Source of the DNA: an uncultured Eubacteriales bacterium
GTDB taxonomy: Bacteria > Bacillota_A > Clostridia > Christensenellales > Aristaeellaceae
Direction: 5' to 3'
DNA length: 9,988 bases
Assembly (NCBI GenBank): GCA_902775835.1
Contig: CACYNZ010000120.1
Span: forward strand, 1 to 9,988
Shown here: piece by piece, positions 1 through 5,465 of the stretch
Position numbering within the stretch: position 1 is the stretch's first letter
How the letters are laid out: every line of letters starts with the position of its first letter
Notes under the pieces: model-generated
Database searches by the model: none
Told to the model about the DNA's origin: nothing
What the model saw: only the letters and a program-made list of their open reading frames with translations
Made by a program: the position numbers and the translations under genes

Positions 1-105
1 CCGGTGCCGCTCCAGAAATTCACGGCAGAAGATGGGCTCATTGATTGTTTTCCCCGTGAACCATTCCGGCCAGGTATCAAGCCGCTCGATCTTTTTCTGG
101 GCCAC
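1..105 (-). CDS. Start of an unidentified element gene (partial, 35 codons)
   Basis: An open frame runs off the left edge of the window. It begins with GTG at 105-103, preceded by a strong AGGAGG at 115-120 with a 9-base spacer. The 35 visible residues start MAQKKIERLDTWPEWFTGK and have no stop. The gene overlaps the last 29 bases of the upstream CHC2 zinc-finger gene in another frame, which suggests translational coupling. In related elements the gene after a CHC2 protein is often a P4-type or VapE-like primase-helicase. That is only a contextual guess, because too little protein is visible to assign a family. It is too short to stand out without its ribosome binding site. Confidence 0.6.
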   Translation of the reverse strand, partial: MAQKKIERLDTWPEWFTGKTINEPIFCREFLERHR

Positions 106-700
106 TATTCTTCACCTCCTGACATTCTACATTGAGGATCGCTTCGATTTTTGCAACAGCATCTGTGCTCCTGATATGATCCATGATGGCTTTTCGCTCG
201 TCCGGGTCGGATGAAAAGAGACGATCAATGGCATCGCCCAAGGTTGGCAGGTGATGAACAGCGTGCACGAATCGGTCATCAAAATTTTCATTCTTGGGAT
301 CAGAGGGAGCGAAATCTTCCTTCCATTTTTCCAGGAGCCGCTCATATTCGATCAGGATTTTCAGCACGCGCTGTTCCTCTTTTCTTTCGATCACAGCAGC
401 GGGCAGCTTCGGGATCGGTGCGCTTTGCCCCGGCGGCAGCGGCTGAATGTTGAAATCATTCGCCAGCTTCTTCGCCGCGTCATACAGCGGAAGGCTGAAC
501 AACCTGGCCGTGAAATCAATCACATCGCCGGTGGTGTGGCAGCCGAAGCAATAGAATCGTTCATCAATCTTCATGGAAGGGTGACGGTCATCGTGGAATG
601 GACAGCAGGCCATGCCGCTGCGATTCACGGGTACGCCGTAACGTTCCGCTGCCTGACGGGTGGTAACTTGGGACTTGACTTGGGTGAAAAGTAAACTCAT
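77..700 (-). CDS. CHC2 zinc-finger (DnaG-type primase N-terminal) protein
   Basis: The 207-residue protein carries a CHC2 zinc-binding motif near its N-terminus: C33-x2-H36, then C51-x2-C54, with the context CPFHDDRHPS and FYCFGC typical of DnaG-like primases. In primases this domain recognises template DNA. No Toprim catalytic core is visible, so this is a zinc-finger module on its own, probably acting with another replication protein of the element. Residues about 115-200 are charged and likely helical. The start at 700 is chosen over an upstream in-frame ATG at 808 because AGGAGG lies at 705-710, directly before it, and homology-like sequence begins only there. The gene follows the relaxase after a 571-base gap and overlaps the next gene's start by 29 bases. 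Confidence 0.85.
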   Translation of the reverse strand: MSLLFTQVKSQVTTRQAAERYGVPVNRSGMACCPFHDDRHPSMKIDERFYCFGCHTTGDVIDFTARLFSLPLYDAAKKLANDFNIQPLPPGQSAPIPKLPAAVIERKEEQRVLKILIEYERLLEKWKEDFAPSDPKNENFDDRFVHAVHHLPTLGDAIDRLFSSDPDERKAIMDHIRSTDAVAKIEAILNVECQEVKNSGPEKDRAA

Positions 701-704
701 GTTT

Positions 705-710
705 CCTCCT
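705..710 (-). promoter_or_regulatory. Ribosome binding site deciding the CHC2 protein start
   Basis: AGGAGG on the minus strand sits four bases before the ATG at 700-698. It supports the 207-residue product rather than the 243-residue version starting at 808. Confidence 0.75.
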
Positions 711-772
711 GTTGTTGATTTTGCTGTTGTGCTTTCTGCTGTATGTCCGATCACACAGCAGGAGGATATCCT

Positions 773-821
773 GCCATCCTGCGTTCGGATCATGCTTCGC
801 GACGGCATGACGCAGGACGGC
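773..821. repeat. Nested inverted repeat upstream of the CHC2 gene
   Basis: The outer arms are 773-783 (GCCATCCTGCG) and 811-821 (CGCAGGACGGC), which pair over 11 positions with one mismatch. Inside, TCATGC (790-795) pairs with GCATGA (805-810) around a nine-base loop, leaving TTCGGA unpaired on one side. The structure lies about 75 bases before the CHC2 start. It could be an mRNA leader fold, an operator or part of a replication origin; the sequence does not decide. Confidence 0.5.
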
Positions 822-924
822 TTTATGTGAACGCACAGGATAGCTTTTCCTGAGCGGGAAGTCGTTGGGATGAAGCCTTACGCTCTGGCTTTCACCGTCA
901 CCATATCACATAGCCTTCAAAATC

Positions 925-943
925 GTTTTCACGTTATGAAAAC
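925..943. repeat. Perfect 7-bp inverted repeat, copy 1 of a related pair
   Basis: GTTTTCA (925-931) and TGAAAAC (937-943) pair perfectly around CGTTA. A second version lies at 1037-1055 and matches at 16 of 19 positions. It may be a protein binding site in the relaxase-to-CHC2 gap. Confidence 0.5.
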
Positions 944-1036
944 TTCGGAAAGCGTTGCGGCATAAGGCTTTGTTGGCATTTTTACGTCTGTTTGAATTTC
1001 TGAAATGACGGTTTTACTGGGTTTCCCGGGCTAAAA

Positions 1037-1055
1037 GTTTTCACGAAATGAAATC
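1037..1055. repeat. Copy 2 of the 19-bp dyad motif, imperfect
   Basis: This site keeps the GTTTTCACG half of the motif at 925-943 but reads AAATGAAATC on the other side. It differs at three of 19 positions, so the dyad is less perfect. The start-to-start distance between the copies is 112 bases. Confidence 0.4.
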
Positions 1056-1113
1056 TCTTTTTTTCGGGAGCACGATTCCATGGTCTCCTGAAACCAGCCC
1101 TGGAGCATAGTAG

Positions 1114-1232
1114 CAAGCAGGGCAAAAGTAGCACTTTTGCACTTTGCTTGTTGGGGCACTCCCGGGGCCTGCCGGCCCGCTCTTCGCTGAAAATGATCCA
1201 CTGGATCATTTTCCGGGCGCTCAAAGCCCCAA
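1114..1232 (-). other. Candidate origin of transfer (oriT) with nested inverted repeats
   Basis: This 119-base block just downstream of the relaxase gene is packed with dyads. A hairpin pairs GCAAAAGT (1122-1129) with ACTTTTGC (1133-1140), flanked by CAAGCA (1114-1119) and TGCTTG (1145-1150). GGGCC (1165-1169) pairs with GGCCC (1174-1178). A 25-base palindrome with 12-base arms spans 1189-1213. TTGGGGC (1151-1157) and GCCCCAA (1226-1232) enclose the last two. On the minus strand, TGCCCTGCTTGC follows the first hairpin. Its CTG/C step resembles nick regions of MOBP systems such as RP4, so a nick near 1118-1120 is plausible. No nick site is proven. Short open frames crossing this block do not look like genes. 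Confidence 0.6.
1189..1213. repeat. 25-base perfect palindrome with one central base
   Basis: GAAAATGATCCA (1189-1200) and TGGATCATTTTC (1202-1213) are exact reverse complements around C1201. It is the longest perfect dyad I found in the window and lies inside the candidate oriT. No run of T follows on either strand that would make it a standard terminator. Confidence 0.85.
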
Positions 1233-1271
1233 TCCCTTTTACCAGCGCAAGCGCTGTGGTTGTTTTGCGAA

Positions 1272-2711
1272 TCAGCGGGATTCGTCATCGTGGTTGGCAC
1301 CGTGTTCATCGTAGTGGTGATCTTTTGGTATGACATGTTGGTGACCATTTGGTGCGCTGTCTCTTTCCAGTACATTATAGTTATACAGAATGTGCTTGAG
1401 GTCAGTCAGCTTTGGTTTCAGCTCGTCGAGCGCTGCCTGATCGGTTTCTTTCCCTTCCTTCAGCCCGTCGTACTCTGCTGTCAGTTCTTTCAGTGTCGGC
1501 ATCTTTCCATCGAGTGAGGAATAAACCGCTTGTGCATTTTTGTGATCTTCGATCTCCTGCCGATGCTCCTGATAGAATTTCACCGACCAGCCAGATTCCC
1601 GATACTGGGTATAAATCTCTTTCGTCCGGCTGTAATCCCGGATCGCTTGCCGCTGCCGATTGATCTCCTTCATCCGATTTTGCTTTTCCCGGAGAGATGC
1701 CTTCAGGGCGTTTTGCTGATCCGTCAATTCCTGAATCTGCTCGTTCAGTTCTTCCATCGAACCGATATGATGCTCTTTCAGGAAAATGATCATCTGTGCT
1801 TTCGTGTCAATGTTGTTCCGCTCGGCCCACACCTGATAGCCTTTTCCCTTGCCGGCACGGAGCTTTGCTTCAATGTCGACCAGCCGTTTGATCTGACTTT
1901 CAGAATAATCTCCCCGTGGGATTTTCGGAATGTGCACATGATCGTGTGCCAGCGTCCGGCGCAAAGATGCTTCATCGTATTCCGGCCCCAACGTATCGAG
2001 CCGGATATACCGTTTACCATCCGGCGGCTTGATGCTGATATGCGCGCCGCGCTTGATGCGACAGCCGACGTCTTCCAGCAGCTGCATCAGCGCATCAAAA
2101 CCGTCAGGCTGCATCCGCAATGCGGTGTCGATGATCATTCGCAGCTCATCCCGATGGGTGAACTTTCGCTGATTGCCTTGCCACTTGTTATAAGAAACGG
2201 TTTTGTTCTGAGGATCATGAATGACCGAAAGCTGATGCGCTTCACAAATCGCATCGCTGAGTTGGGCCAGATCCTTGCCGCTGCGTTTCACATCCCGATA
2301 CTTGTGTTGGCAGTCCAGCGCCGTTGAGCAAATGACAATGTGGTTATGCACATGATGTTTGTCGATGTGCGTCGCGACGACGTAGGCGAACTGATCGTTG
2401 GTCATGCGGGACGCCAGCTCTTTCCCGATCTCATTTGCTTCCTCCGGCGTGATCTCATCTGGCTTGAAAGCCTGCCGGACGTGATAGACCAAAACCTCAT
2501 TTTCGATTTCCCTGCCGGTGTTTTCAAGATACTCCTGCCGGTACAGCATGAATTCGTTGACCGCCGTTTCCGGCATGCAGGCGTGCGATGAAATCAGCGC
2601 GCTGCCGTCGGTCTTTGCCGGATTCATGATGTAATTCAGCTGCGCTGCCACGCACTGCTTCGGCGTTTTTCCTTTGTTGACATGAACGGGTATAATGGTT
2701 GTAGTCGCCAT
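1272..2711 (-). CDS. mobA: Relaxase (mobilization nuclease, MOBP type)
   Basis: This 479-residue protein should nick the element at oriT, stay bound to the 5' end through a tyrosine, and lead the strand into a recipient. Residues about 1-250 form the relaxase domain. The candidate catalytic tyrosine is Y27 in LNYIMNP. The motif VYHVRQAFKPDEITPEEA at about 75-92 is characteristic of clostridial relaxases. The metal-binding motif HxDxxHxHNH is complete at 115-124. A long charged coiled-coil-like region covers about 310-375. The tail is rich in histidine and aspartate, possibly a disordered end. The start is backed by AGGAGG at 2716-2721, four bases upstream. It follows mobC after 77 bases with a hairpin between them. 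The length and motifs look intact. Confidence 0.93.
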   Translation of the reverse strand: MATTTIIPVHVNKGKTPKQCVAAQLNYIMNPAKTDGSALISSHACMPETAVNEFMLYRQEYLENTGREIENEVLVYHVRQAFKPDEITPEEANEIGKELASRMTNDQFAYVVATHIDKHHVHNHIVICSTALDCQHKYRDVKRSGKDLAQLSDAICEAHQLSVIHDPQNKTVSYNKWQGNQRKFTHRDELRMIIDTALRMQPDGFDALMQLLEDVGCRIKRGAHISIKPPDGKRYIRLDTLGPEYDEASLRRTLAHDHVHIPKIPRGDYSESQIKRLVDIEAKLRAGKGKGYQVWAERNNIDTKAQMIIFLKEHHIGSMEELNEQIQELTDQQNALKASLREKQNRMKEINRQRQAIRDYSRTKEIYTQYRESGWSVKFYQEHRQEIEDHKNAQAVYSSLDGKMPTLKELTAEYDGLKEGKETDQAALDELKPKLTDLKHILYNYNVLERDSAPNGHQHVIPKDHHYDEHGANHDDESR

Positions 2712-2737
2712 GGTTCCTCCTTTTTGCGCATAAGAAA

Positions 2738-2766
2738 GCGGCGATTTGCAAGCTGCAAAACGCCGC
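2738..2766 (-). terminator. Hairpin between mobC and the relaxase gene
   Basis: GCGGCG (2738-2743) pairs with CGCCGC (2761-2766), and TTTGCA (2745-2750) pairs with TGCAAA (2754-2759) around AGC, with a single A-A mismatch on the plus strand (U-U in the minus transcript). On the minus strand the stem is followed by TTTCTTAT, as in a weak intrinsic terminator, then by the relaxase ribosome binding site about 16 bases on. It probably lowers relaxase expression relative to mobC or protects the mRNA end. Confidence 0.6.
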
Positions 2767-2788
2767 GATAATAAATGATGATCCCTGA

Positions 2789-3133
2789 TTATCGTCTTAT
2801 CCGATCCAGGCTGGTGAGGATCTTGTCCAACGTATCCTGTAATTGCTTTTGCCTTTCCACAATGTCGTCTATCTCCGTTTCATAAATCGATCCGCCTTCA
2901 TGCAGCCGCCGGGCGATCTGATTCACGTTGTTGGAAAGATTGCCCATGAGACGCGTTGCATTTTTCAGCTCCGGCAGATCCAAGCACAGAATCAATCCTC
3001 CCAGAACAATGCGTCGGATGAACGCAGATTGATTCTTGATTCCGGTAAGCTCCATCTTTTTCTGAATGATCTCATCCTCCTCCGGCGTGGCTTTGAAGCT
3101 GTAGTGGATGGTGCGTTTCTGATTTTCGTTCAT
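2789..3133 (-). CDS. mobC: MobC-family mobilization accessory protein
   Basis: This 114-residue protein has a ribbon-helix-helix-like N-terminus (about residues 6-45: a short strand, two helices, then NQSAFIRRIVLGG). The MobC signature NLSNNVNQIARR lies at about 65-76, followed by a helical C-terminus. Relatives bind DNA at oriT, help the relaxase open the strands and often repress their own operon. It is the first gene of the mobilization unit, 77 bases before the relaxase. AGGAGG at 3140-3145 with a six-base spacer fixes the start. Its upstream region holds five promoter modules with phased repeats. Being a ribbon-helix-helix protein, it is one candidate to bind them, though nothing in the sequence proves this. 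Confidence 0.88.
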   Translation of the reverse strand: MNENQKRTIHYSFKATPEEDEIIQKKMELTGIKNQSAFIRRIVLGGLILCLDLPELKNATRLMGNLSNNVNQIARRLHEGGSIYETEIDDIVERQKQLQDTLDKILTSLDRIRR

Positions 3134-3162
3134 GCTCTTCCTCCTTTTCTGATTATCGATGG

Positions 3163-3198
3163 GTAAAAGAAAAGCACCGGCATAATTGCCAGTGCTTT
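3163..3198 (-). terminator. Intrinsic-terminator-like hairpin in the mobC leader
   Basis: AAAGCAC (3171-3177) pairs with GTGCTTT (3192-3198), and GGCA (3179-3182) with TGCC (3187-3190) around TAAT. The one mismatch becomes a U-G wobble in the minus-strand RNA, giving a 12-pair stem followed by TTTTCTTTT. It lies only about 10 bases after the predicted start of transcription from the nearest promoter and before the mobC ribosome binding site. mobC expression from any of these promoters must therefore read through it. Confidence 0.7.
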
Positions 3199-3214
3199 CA
3201 ACTCCTCAGAATAT

Positions 3215-3243
3215 ATGATAGGACAAATTGGCAGTACAGTCAA
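3215..3243 (-). promoter_or_regulatory. Promoter A, nearest to mobC
   Basis: On the minus strand TTGACT (3238-3243) and TATCAT (3215-3220) are separated by exactly 17 bases, a near-consensus vegetative promoter facing mobC. Array A lies just upstream of it. Confidence 0.65.
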
Positions 3244-3253
3244 GTGACCAACT

Positions 3254-3281
3254 GGGGGCTTAAAGGGGGCCTAATGGGGGC
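3254..3281. repeat. Array A: three GGGGGC repeats at 11-base spacing
   Basis: GGGGGC begins at 3254, 3265 and 3276, each followed by a pyrimidine and T. The array starts 11 bases upstream of the -35 element of promoter A. Confidence 0.8.
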
Positions 3282-3319
3282 TTGTTATGGACAACTTTTA
3301 TCCTTCTTTTACATCGTAC

Positions 3320-3348
3320 ATTATAGCATAGAAAGGAGCCGGTGTTAA
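3320..3348 (-). promoter_or_regulatory. Promoter B
   Basis: TTAACA (3343-3348) and TATAAT (3320-3325) are 17 bases apart on the minus strand, and the -10 has the extended TGC form. This is the best-matching promoter of the five. It faces mobC and sits next to array B. Confidence 0.7.
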
Positions 3349-3350
3349 GA

Positions 3351-3399
3351 CGGCACAGGGACGACATTGGACGACAATTTCACGACGTGGGGACGACAA
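3351..3399. repeat. Array B: four to five CGACA-type repeats
   Basis: CGACA or CGACG cores begin at 3362, 3372, 3383 and 3394, with a degenerate CGGCAC at 3351. The spacing alternates 10 and 11 bases, close to the DNA helical repeat. Three of the cores are preceded by A, giving ACGACA. Confidence 0.75.
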
Positions 3400-3423
3400 T
3401 TTTTGTCCAGCTTTACATCGTAC

Positions 3424-3452
3424 ATTATACCATGCCTTGACCTGGGCGTCTT
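3424..3452 (-). promoter_or_regulatory. Promoter C, strong -10 without a good -35
   Basis: TATAAT (3424-3429) lies in the same 18-base context as promoter B, but the -35 position (3447-3452) reads AAGACG. Array C begins two bases beyond it, so a bound protein may replace the missing -35. Confidence 0.5.
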
Positions 3453-3453
3453 G

Positions 3454-3479
3454 CGACTTTTGGCGACATGCGGCGACGA
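3454..3479. repeat. Array C: three GGCGAC-type repeats at 10-base spacing
   Basis: CGAC cores begin at 3454, 3464 and 3474. The preceding bases are TG, GG and GG, which separates this set from the ACGACA words of arrays B and D. Confidence 0.65.
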
Positions 3480-3571
3480 TTTTTGGAATCGGGGATCCAT
3501 ATCCGTAGCAATCACAAGAGGCGTTGCTGGGGTGAGTTCAACTTTTCCCTGTTGCATTTTTCGCATGATAC

Positions 3572-3600
3572 ATGATATCAGTTTTCCATCACGACATCAA
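3572..3600 (-). promoter_or_regulatory. Promoter D
   Basis: TTGATG (3595-3600) and TATCAT (3572-3577) are 17 bases apart on the minus strand. The first repeat of array D overlaps the -35. GATACATGATA, covering the -10, is shared with promoter E. Confidence 0.55.
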
Positions 3601-3650
3601 GACGACATCGGGGCGACATTGGACGACATTTACACGACATAGGACGACAC
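3592..3650. repeat. Array D: six CGACA(T) repeats at 10-11 base spacing
   Basis: CGACAT begins at 3592, 3603, 3614, 3624 and 3635, and CGACAC at 3645. The steps are 11, 11, 10, 11 and 10, averaging 10.6 bases, almost exactly one helical turn. The bases between cores are not conserved. Confidence 0.85.
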
Positions 3651-3703
3651 ATTTTTTCATATGAACTTTGCAAGCGTTATCATGCTGTGCCGCGACAAGC
3701 GCA

Positions 3704-3739
3704 ATAGAAAAGCACCAGTCGTTTTATCGACTGATGCTT
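3704..3739 (-). terminator. Terminator-like hairpin after promoter E
   Basis: AAGCA (3710-3714) pairs with TGCTT (3735-3739), and CAGTCG (3716-3721) with CGACTG (3728-3733) around TTTTAT. The C-A mismatch becomes a U-G wobble on the minus strand, followed by TTTTCTATT. It shares the closing sequence GGTGCTTTTCT with the hairpin at 3171-3198. It is the first terminator after pyrG and may end the gltBD-pur-pyrG transcript. Confidence 0.65.
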
Positions 3740-3760
3740 CCATATCTTTTCACAGGATAC

Positions 3761-3789
3761 ATGATACCACGTCAAGCCCTGGACATGGG
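3761..3789 (-). promoter_or_regulatory. Promoter E, -10 with repeats in place of a -35
   Basis: TATCAT (3761-3766) shares an 11-base core with promoter D. The -35 position (3784-3789) reads CCCATG and is covered by the first repeat of array E. A TTGACG at 3770-3775 lies too close to serve as -35 for this -10. Confidence 0.4.
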
Positions 3790-3847
3790 TGGGACATTTT
3801 AGGACATACCAGGACATTTCAGGACATTTTGGGACATTCGAGGACAT
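3781..3847. repeat. Array E: seven GGACAT repeats at 10-base spacing
   Basis: GGACAT begins at 3781, 3792, 3802, 3812, 3822, 3832 and 3842, with one 11-base step and then five 10-base steps. All seven copies are exact; the four bases between them vary but are often T-rich. The array ends 27 bases from the pyrG stop codon. Confidence 0.92.
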
Positions 3848-3874
3848 TTTTTGATGATGATAAAACAATGTACC

Positions 3875-5465
<1,591 letters not shown>

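What the first reader, a model, noticed from the sequence alone, without database searches (positions are those of the whole stretch)
3215..3847. Five promoter modules with helically phased, differently worded repeat arrays
Five arrays of short direct repeats at 10-11 base spacing each sit on the upstream side of a minus-strand -10 element. The words differ (GGGGGC x3, ACGACA x4-5, GGCGAC x3, CGACAT x6, GGACAT x7) but the layout recurs. From the -10 edge to the first repeat the offsets are 34, 26 (or 37 without the degenerate copy), 25, 15 and 15 bases, roughly steps of one helical turn. Repeats would then lie on about the same DNA face relative to polymerase. That pattern suits oligomeric binding of a regulator, as with ribbon-helix-helix or OmpR-type proteins, with different specificities per array. 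I know of no named system with this arrangement, but I could not search for one.
Basis: partly seen in the sequence, partly recalled or inferred. Interest (0 to 1): 0.8.

Follow-up and report, generated by a model that had tools for sequence, protein, structure and literature searches.

The report
Mobile element with five helper-sensing promoters
A small hitch-hiking DNA element of gut bacteria carries five switches side by side in front of its transfer gene, at least three of them apparently copied from the control switches of different larger self-transferring elements, so it could wake up when any one of several carriers becomes active.

Summary
In detail: five arrays of short repeats at 10-11 base steps lie upstream of minus-strand -10 elements (23 copies; at most 6 in 300 shuffles). 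They form the right end of an integrative and mobilizable element (IME), before mobC-mobA. The regulator guess does not hold. In genomes of the same family and in viral contigs such arrays often sit directly behind genes for sigma-region-4-like late activators (DUF1492/ArpU/RinA/Ltr class), before prophage genes and before the ParA-ParB-VirD4-VirB4 operon of conjugative elements (ICEs); words differ between activators. Three window modules match different ICE promoters with the same array-to--10 spacing to within a base: M1 L132, M3 L158-L160, M4 L128. M2 is related to L128; M5 shares word and 14-base spacing with promoters in viral contigs. The IME stretches searched encode no such activator. 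Across six IME copies, arrays, and words within them, vary least. Best reading: captured operator-promoters, each answering a different helper's activator, so mobC is expressed with whichever helper is active. Helper sensing has precedents (SGI1/AcaCD); this stacked, multi-helper form was not found in my searches. No transcription or binding was tested.

The parts
3254..3283 (-). Array 1 (module 1): GCCCCC x3 read on the minus strand, 33 bases upstream of its -10
   Evidence: copy number 1 in L001, 2 in L002, 3 in the window, L004, L009, L010
3215..3220 (-). Module 1 -10 (TATCAT) with -35 TTGACT at 3238-3243
3171..3198 (-). Promoter-proximal hairpin of 12 pairs with T-run in the mobC leader, 22 to 50 bases from the start of the module 1 -10
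   Evidence: (I6); not listed by the consensus terminator scan; met by the same strict rule in L003, L004, L010, L059 and L060, not in L001, L002 and L009
3350..3402 (-). Array 2 (module 2): TGTCGT words x4 plus one weak copy
   Evidence: whole module absent from L001 and L002
3320..3325 (-). Module 2 -10 (TATAAT) with -35 TTAACA at 3343-3348
   Evidence: 11 of 12 matches
3445..3481 (-). Array 3 (module 3): GTCGCC/GTCGCA words ending in GACGCC 15 bases from the -10
3424..3429 (-). Module 3 -10 (TATAAT), no promoter match in the sigma-70 scan
3588..3655 (-). Array 4 (module 4): ATGTCG words x6
   Evidence: 3 of 68 columns variable in the IME alignment
3572..3577 (-). Module 4 -10 (TATCAT), 14 bases from the array
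3781..3851 (-). Array 5 (module 5): ATGTCC x7, at the right end of the IME
   Evidence: flank changes just beyond it in L001 and L009
3761..3766 (-). Module 5 -10 (TATCAT), 14 bases from the array; no promoter match in the sigma-70 scan
3710..3739 (-). Hairpin of 12 pairs with T-run in the module 5 leader, 27 to 57 bases from the start of the -10; by eye identical in L009 and weaker in the other copies
   Evidence: (I10); not listed by the scan
2789..3133 (-). mobC (NikA-like/MobC accessory protein), first gene behind the stack
1272..2711 (-). mobA, MobA/VirD2-type relaxase
   Evidence: PF03432, 2.1e-33
77..694 (-). CHC2 zinc-finger primase-like protein of the element
3853..3874 (.). Right boundary of the IME, just beyond the pyrG stop codon
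   Evidence: comparison of L001, L002, L004, L009, L010 with the window

Best explanation
The region is the regulatory right end of an IME. Each module is a late-type operator-promoter (phased direct repeats plus a -10) of the kind recognised by a sigma-region-4-like activator of the Ltr/RinA/ArpU/DUF1492 class. In many ICEs and prophages the activator gene sits directly upstream of one such array and would switch on the conjugation or late operon. The IME stretches seen carry no activator but up to five arrays with different words, in series, all pointing at mobC-mobA. The activator of any of several helpers would bind its own array as a head-to-tail oligomer and recruit RNA polymerase to that -10, so the relaxase operon is expressed when that helper is transferring. 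Shown by sequence: arrays, -10s, activator adjacency elsewhere, word differences, module-to-ICE matches with kept spacing, lower variability. Inferred: binding, activation and mobilisation by several helpers.
For: (1) Activator-array adjacency: 15 of 72 distinct activators have a strict array in the last 40 bases of the gene plus 90 downstream; 0 of 72 upstream, 3 of 72 at 170-300 downstream, 0 in shuffles. Blind test in viral contigs: 19 of 70 array loci against 0 of 400 random positions. (2) Module matches: M4 to the ICE array L128 over 95 bases at 82%; M3 to ICEs L158, L159, L160 over 54-59 bases at 78-81%; M1 to ICE L132 over 39 bases at 85%; 0 of 65 control pieces matched at E 0.001 in the corresponding set. 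(3) Spacing to the -10 in IME and ICE: M1 33 vs 34; M3 15 vs 15; M4 14 vs 14. (4) IME array L059_b matches the ICE array of its own genome G171 at 80% over 87 bases. (5) Six IME copies: variable columns 24 of 240 in arrays, 4 of 45 in -10 stretches, 70 of 251 elsewhere; repeat words 6 of 138, linkers 15 of 80. (6) No activator-profile hit in the IME stretches searched; hits in ICEs L119, L123, L251. (7) The ICE behind L129 is a real conjugative element: VirB4 CD1110 and VirD4 CD1115 families; its relative L119 has ParB and sortase domains. (8) Activator model: C-terminal sigma region 4; best full-length viral match is a DUF1492 protein, TM 0.81/0.88. (9) Known Ltrs act through direct repeats, in phi13 at the 3' end of the ltr gene, and deleting them abolishes the promoter (PMC13123087, passages).
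Against: No transcription, binding or transfer data. 57 of 72 activators have no strict array right behind them and 50 of 70 viral array loci have no recognisable activator within 1.5 kb. The word-activator correlation rests on few related pairs (Mantel r 0.56, p 2e-4, 21 activator-array entries, but Spearman only 0.08). M5 has only a weak match (L162, 32 bases, 81%) and M2 only a related one. In ICE L132 the activator is cut by the contig end and the array lies about 1 kb further on, behind other frames. In ICE L119 another gene lies between activator and array. The third module of IME L059 does not keep the M1 spacing (13). Of eight hosts of array-bearing IMEs in the family draw only G004 and G171 have an activator hit (the draw is taken to be that), and no strict array follows the one in G004. 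The genomes named are MAGs.
Confidence: 0.66

Rival explanations
1. The same operators, but the helper protein works at least partly as a Q-like antitermination factor: it loads at the array, and RNA polymerase starting there reads through the hairpin terminator placed about 20-60 bases downstream.
For: 14 of 21 array promoters have a perfect hairpin plus T-run starting 19-43 bases after the start of the -10; 30 of 82 activator-downstream stretches against 9 of 82 on the opposite strand, about 1.5 in shuffles and 5 of 78 further away. In the window modules 1 and 5 meet the same rule at 22 and 27 bases. Weak antiterminator-Q hits: PF06530 in L129, L133 and L122, all below its cut-off, and phrog_79 in five of six activators at E 3.5e-4 to 0.19. 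Modules 1 and 2 have good -35 boxes.
Against: Modules 3 and 5 have no promoter match and module 4 a weak -35, as expected for activation; the Ltr paper reports dependence of promoter activity on regulator and repeats (PMC13123087). Window modules 2, 3 and 4 have no hairpin near the -10, and the mobC leader hairpin misses the strict rule in L001, L002 and L009. The consensus scan listed neither window hairpin. The hairpins could simply stop read-through from upstream genes.
Confidence: 0.2
2. Decoy: the arrays soak up the helpers' activators and damp the helper, and the promoters matter little.
For: Many copies per IME; SGI1 elements are known to destabilise their helper plasmid (PMC5704250, passages).
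Against: The -10 stretches are as little variable as the arrays, array-to--10 spacing is kept in the matched modules, and all five modules point at mobC.
Confidence: 0.06
3. Scar: leftover promoter pieces gathered by repeated insertion or recombination of related elements, without present function.
For: Modules share pieces (a 45-base stretch repeated at 82%, and a TATAATGTACGATGTAAA-like core in modules 2 and 3); L001 and L002 lack module 2 with a junction at that core; L003 has only one module; six of eight IME hosts show no activator.
Against: Arrays vary about a third as much as the surrounding stretches, words less than linkers. A past-use signal does not prove use today.
Confidence: 0.1
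4. The arrays bind MobC or another DNA-binding protein of the element itself (relaxosome or autoregulation).
For: They lie next to mobC.
Against: Arrays of the same kind stand before ParA-, ParB-, primase- and terminase-like genes (named by eye) without mobC; nearly identical MobC goes with one array or the full stack.
Confidence: 0.03

Closest known systems
Ltr / RinA / ArpU (DUF1492) late activators of Gram-positive phages and their repeat operators (phi13 Ltr-P23, TP901-1 Alt)
   Same: Small protein encoded directly upstream of its promoter; direct repeats, in phi13 inside the 3' end of the gene; a -10 behind them; operon switched on late (PMC13123087, passages).
   Different: Here words of about 6 bases at 10-11 base steps (phi13: three 18-base repeats plus a partial one); such regulators also occur in ICEs before the transfer operon; and arrays for several regulators are stacked in an element in which no regulator was found.
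SGI1/MGI islands sensing AcaCD of IncA/C plasmids, MGIVflInd1 sensing SetCD of SXT
   Same: An integrated, non-self-transferring element uses the helper's master activator as the signal to start (PMC4605294 abstract; PMC5704250 passages).
   Different: There one activator type is sensed; here up to five different operator words in one stack, activators of another fold, target mobC-mobA rather than xis or mobI.
ICEs of Clostridia with VirB4 CD1110 and VirD4 CD1115 families (Tn1549/CTn-like; that label is recalled)
   Same: The probable helpers belong here by their transfer genes.
   Different: Control by an Ltr-like activator plus phased array was not found described in the searches I made.
Phage Q antiterminators with leader terminator (recalled)
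   Same: Promoter with adjoining protein site followed by an early terminator.
   Different: Arrays lie upstream of or over the -35 position with 3-9 copies; similarity of the proteins to Q is weak.

Membership tests
Ltr/RinA/ArpU-type late operator-promoter | Regulator gene directly upstream of the promoter | tested here: not met
   No activator-profile hit in window 1-3853; in ICEs and phages with such arrays it is often met. So the window holds operators of this type without the regulator.
Ltr/RinA/ArpU-type late operator-promoter | Several imperfect direct repeats upstream of a -10 | tested here: met
Ltr/RinA/ArpU-type late operator-promoter | Promoter activity depends on regulator and repeats | not testable with these tools
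   needs reporter assays
Ltr/RinA/ArpU/DUF1492 proteins (the linked activators in ICEs) | Small protein with sigma-region-4-like DNA-binding part | tested here: met
   PHROG 36 in all six tested (1e-17 to 1.4e-13); Sigma70_ECF above its cut-off in L129 and L135; model of P0011 matches sigma region 4 and phage DUF1492 proteins
Ltr/RinA/ArpU/DUF1492 proteins (the linked activators in ICEs) | Score above the curated cut-off of ArpU (TIGR01637), RinA (TIGR01636) or DUF1492 (PF07374) | tested here: inconclusive
   DUF1492 met by L133 (23.3 vs 21.5); ArpU and RinA only below cut-off
Integrative and mobilizable element | Own relaxase/mobilisation genes, no mating-pair formation genes | tested here: inconclusive
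   Relaxase and MobC present; the sister copy L045 adds a P4-type primase and a tyrosine integrase beside tRNA-Ser; its gene set was read by eye, not all scanned, and the window is cut on the left
Integrative and mobilizable element | Defined att sites and excision | tested here: inconclusive
   The right end is constant but I saw no direct repeat of the tRNA-Ser end beside it (by eye)
Helper-activator-sensing IME (SGI1-like) | IME promoter carries the helper activator's binding site | tested here: met
   By sequence similarity to ICE arrays only:
Helper-activator-sensing IME (SGI1-like) | Activation and mobilisation by the helper | not testable with these tools
   needs mating and reporter tests
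Phage Q antiterminator system | Q-family protein | tested here: inconclusive
   Only weak hits

The most novel reading that the evidence does not exclude
A mobilizable element runs an OR gate: a stack of operator-promoters captured from several unrelated ICEs, and perhaps phages, lets one IME be switched on by the private late activator of whichever helper is active. The stack changes by gain and loss of modules (1 to 5 in the IMEs seen), and the promoter-proximal terminators mean that the helper protein must also modify the polymerase. Operator-activator pairs would then be a readable record of which helpers an IME can use.
Probability: 0.45. Interest if true: 0.86.

Novelty: new variant of a known kind. 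Interest (0 to 1): 0.75.

Why it matters
It would show that a conjugation parasite is not tied to one helper but reads several helpers' private signals, and it makes helper range predictable from sequence: match the IME's array words to activator genes. It also extends the phage late-activator class to the transfer operons of ICEs in gut and rumen Clostridia, and gives many natural activator-operator pairs from which the recognition code of this sigma-region-4-like fold could be learned.

Tried and rejected
Window genome: not held, so other arrays in the host itself could not be searched. Phage and plasmid collections: no DNA match to 3140-3875. MobC in viral contigs: none. MobC in 347 genomes of the order: 7 with a match, four of them (G004, G035, G095, G153) already known; upstream DNA of the three new loci L255-L257 (37-42% identity) was not inspected. 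oriT as the meaning of the arrays: set aside because an oriT-like hairpin stretch lies behind mobA in the window, L045, L046 and L047 (recognised by eye, not tested). CRISPR, iterons, RNA families: not pursued once activator adjacency was clear. The 160-residue sigma-like protein of ICEs L119 and L123 (L119:3300-3782) was considered as the binder; it has sigma region 4 but lies kilobases away, while the 140-153-residue activators adjoin the arrays. The 15-base GCCCCC pattern in viral contigs found 28 stretches, none with an activator within 1.5 kb upstream, so it gave no further support for module 1. The PDB second look was filled mostly with coiled coils and says nothing on function. Small reading frames across the arrays (3345-3566 and 3680-3868, minus) have no Pfam match; the first shifts frame in L001 by eye. 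Some array places lie in genes or lack a -10 by eye (for example L098, L105, L110, L115) and are likely chance. Literature: searches; in their listings I saw no paper on an ICE driven by an Ltr-type activator or an IME with stacked operators; only open-licence PMC papers are searched, and Quiles-Puchalt et al., the founding Ltr paper, was seen only as cited in PMC13123087.

Rows dropped: of the activator places printed I used 86; four more that were fetched (L223, L224, L232, L235) ran off their contigs and were left out; the rest were not fetched. One search cut the 86 to 72 (under 90% identity, 300 bases downstream). One search covered 86 activator-downstream stretches plus nine added loci; one search covered the 86 plus two. 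One search counted 99 overlapping placements; I read the 30 loci it returned. In some searches alignment columns covered by fewer than four copies were left out.

Full report
What is there. The window carries, on its minus strand, mobC (2789-3133), a MobA/VirD2-type relaxase gene (1272-2711) and a CHC2 primase-like gene (77-694), next to a chromosomal pyrG (named by eye). Upstream of mobC lie five arrays of short direct repeats at steps of 10 or 11 bases, each followed on the minus strand by a -10 hexamer. Coordinates and copy numbers were recomputed: 3, 4 (5 with a weak copy), 3, 6 and 7 copies. The five chains hold 23 copies; 300 dinucleotide shuffles gave at most two chains and six copies, and no chain of four or more appeared at seven other step pairs.

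The region belongs to a mobile element. MobC relatives at 92-96% identity were found in L001, L002, L003, L004, L009 and L010 and at 88% in L011; those in L009, L010 and L011 are fragments, in L009 and L010 at contig ends. All are MAG contigs, titled Clostridia or Clostridiales except L003 (Oribacterium); two are from roe deer rumen or omasum by their titles. L001, L002, L004, L009 and L010 carry the same stack, L001 and L002 without module 2; L003 and L011 carry only the module-2 type. The flank beyond array 5 is pyrG in the window, L002, L004 and L010 and something else in L001 and L009, so array 5 is the element's end. The module 2 gap in L001 and L002 has its junction in a core shared by modules 2 and 3, and the GCCCCC copy number is 1, 2 or 3. 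L045, a longer stretch of the genome of L004, adds a P4-type primase and a tyrosine integrase beside tRNA-Ser genes. I saw no repeat of the tRNA end at the right boundary, so the att sites are unresolved.

The layout recurs outside close relatives. MobC relatives at 55-57% identity in other genomes (L059, L060, L061) have the same layout with two or three modules: GCCCC-type, ATGTCGCC-type and, in L059, ATGTCACC-type arrays, each before a -10, then a hairpin, then mobC. These are 3 of the 26 loci printed; the others showed no such arrays by eye.

What the arrays are elsewhere. A loose pattern (ATGTC three times at 10-11 base steps) matched in 38 of 300 genomes of the family, 99 overlapping placements, against 11 placements in 7 genomes for the reversed pattern; the five-module IMEs themselves account for 38 of the 99. 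Behind several of these arrays stand -10 elements and then genes that look by eye like ParA, ParB, CHC2 primase or phage terminase. ParA of one such locus (L119) led to ICEs in which a gene of 140-153 codons ends a few bases before the array: L129, L130, L133, L134, L135, L136; in L131 it ends about 185 bases before it. The words differ: GTCGC..GACGCC in L129, L130 and L135, TGTCGCC in L131, TGGACA in L133, L134 and L136, and TGTCCG behind the relative in L122. The ICE behind L129 has VirB4 (CD1110 family) and VirD4 (CD1115 family); its relative L119 has ParB and sortase domains. Most of the more distant ParA loci (L137 onward) show no array.

The linked regulators. All six activators tested match PHROG 36 'transcriptional regulator' (1e-17 to 1.4e-13) and PHROG 248. 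Pfam gives sigma region 4 just below the curated cut-off, Sigma70_ECF above it for L129 and L135, and DUF1492 above it for L133; NCBIfam ArpU and RinA only below cut-off. Homologs include P0011, named a sigma-70 family factor by its source. A model of P0011 (mean pLDDT 86) is a pair of long helices followed by a domain that overlays sigma region 4 (for example 5fgm, rmsd 1.0 over 59 columns, target TM 0.85), although no PDB match passed E 0.001; the best full-length viral match is a phage DUF1492 protein (TM 0.81 and 0.88).

The rule was tested two ways. First, with the activator as bait: 110 of 300 family genomes have a match; among 72 distinct activators, 15 have a strict array within the last 40 bases of the gene and the next 90, against 0 of 72 in the 130 bases upstream of the gene, 3 of 72 at 170-300 downstream, and none in shuffles. 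Words seen include TTCCAG, GTGCAC, CCGACT and TGACAG. A TATNAT-type hexamer stands 13-15 bases behind the last copy in 13 of 70 loci, with the peak at 14, which is the spacing of modules 4 and 5. Against this stand the 57 of 72 and 50 of 70 that do not show the pair. A Mantel test of activator identity against array similarity gave r 0.56, p 2e-4 over 21 entries, but it rests on few related pairs (Spearman 0.08).

The window modules against ICE promoters. In a set of 86 activator-downstream stretches plus nine added loci, M4 matches L128, the array of the ICE in G053, at 82% over 95 ungapped bases including the -10. M3 matches L158, L159 and L160 at 78-81% over 54-59 bases. M1 matches L132 at 85% over 39 bases. 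M2 matches the single-module IME L003 at 90% over 87 bases and L128 at 72% over 81. M5 has only a weak match to L162 (81% over 32 bases) and to added loci. None of 65 control pieces matched at E 0.001 in the corresponding set. The array-to--10 spacing agrees between IME and ICE: 33 against 34 for M1, 15 for M3, 14 for M4, and 36 for M2 and L003; the third module of L059 departs from this (13). In genome G171 an IME (L059) and an ICE (L131/L161) lie together, and the IME's second module matches that ICE's array at 80% over 87 bases. The IME stretches searched (window 1-3853, L045, L126, L121, L046, L060) gave no activator-profile hit, while ICEs L119, L123 and L251 did. Of eight hosts of array-bearing IMEs in the family draw (G001, G002, G004, G005, G006, G158, G171, G182) only G004 and G171 have an activator match, taking its draw to be that.

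Signs of use. In an alignment of six IME copies, variable columns are 24 of 240 in arrays, 4 of 45 in the -10 stretches, 29 of 110 between array and -10, and 70 of 251 elsewhere (Fisher p 3.5e-7, arrays against elsewhere). Within arrays the repeat words vary in 6 of 138 columns and the linkers in 15 of 80 (p 0.0013). That pattern is what a row of protein contacts would leave. Columns covered by fewer than four copies were left out.

A second regularity. Of 21 array promoters, 14 have a perfect hairpin with T-run starting 19-43 bases after the start of the -10; over 82 activator-downstream stretches it is 30, against 9 on the opposite strand, about 1.5 in shuffles, and 5 of 78 further downstream. 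By the same rule the window has such hairpins behind modules 1 and 5, at 22 and 27 bases, and none near the -10 of modules 2, 3 and 4; the mobC leader meets it in L003, L004, L010, L059 and L060 but not in L001, L002 and L009. The general scan did not list the two window hairpins. They may insulate the late operon, or the activators may also act against termination.

Mechanism proposed. A helper ICE (or phage) makes its late activator, which turns on its own operon and, through the matching module, the IME's mobC-mobA, so the relaxase is made while a mating channel is available. Several modules would let several helpers do this. The cited precedents are SGI1 with AcaCD (PMC4605294, abstract and outline) and SetCD with MGIVflInd1 (PMC5704250, passages); known Ltr regulators work through direct repeats, in phi13 at the end of the regulator gene (PMC13123087, passages). 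What is new here, as far as the listed searches show, is the class of activator in ICEs and the stack. Binding, activation and mobilisation are inferred.

Noticed in passing
window 3875-5465, minus strand: pyrG (CTP synthase, by eye) is split over two frames (3875-5080 and 4926-5465), so the copy beside the element is frameshifted, by error or in truth.
   Followed up: no
L158-L247, window 3171-3198 and 3710-3739: Hairpin terminators stand about 20-60 bases behind the -10 of many array promoters of Ltr-like activators.
   Followed up: partly
L080, L083, L084, L085, L086, upstream of mobC: Other mobC relatives lack arrays but have several diverged modules of roughly 110 bases with motifs such as GTTTCCAAAA...GATTTTGGACAT, another repeated-module region before mobC.
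   Followed up: no
L175, L176, L177, L191, L195, L197, L236, L242, L243: In several prophage-like loci a gene behind the activator and promoter begins like S-adenosylmethionine synthetase (MetK; recognised by eye).
   Followed up: no
L118, L119, L124 (and array loci L116, L117): A DUF4143-like ATPase gene (by eye) lies beside module-4-type arrays: between activator and array in the ICE L119, and beside orphan arrays in L118 and L124.
   Followed up: no
L121 5600-6800: A primase-helicase element with a serine recombinase (by eye) carries a module-3-type array and a second, divergent array of TGTCA words.
   Followed up: no
L009 / L049 about 865-900: The IME end adjoins a sequence like an IS3-family end, and similarly in L061; possibly an insertion or assembly junction (recognised from memory).
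   Followed up: no
L047 about 3819-4251: An insert of about 430 bases with repeated ATTATCCCGAA motifs sits behind the relaxase remnant and is absent from L046.
   Followed up: no
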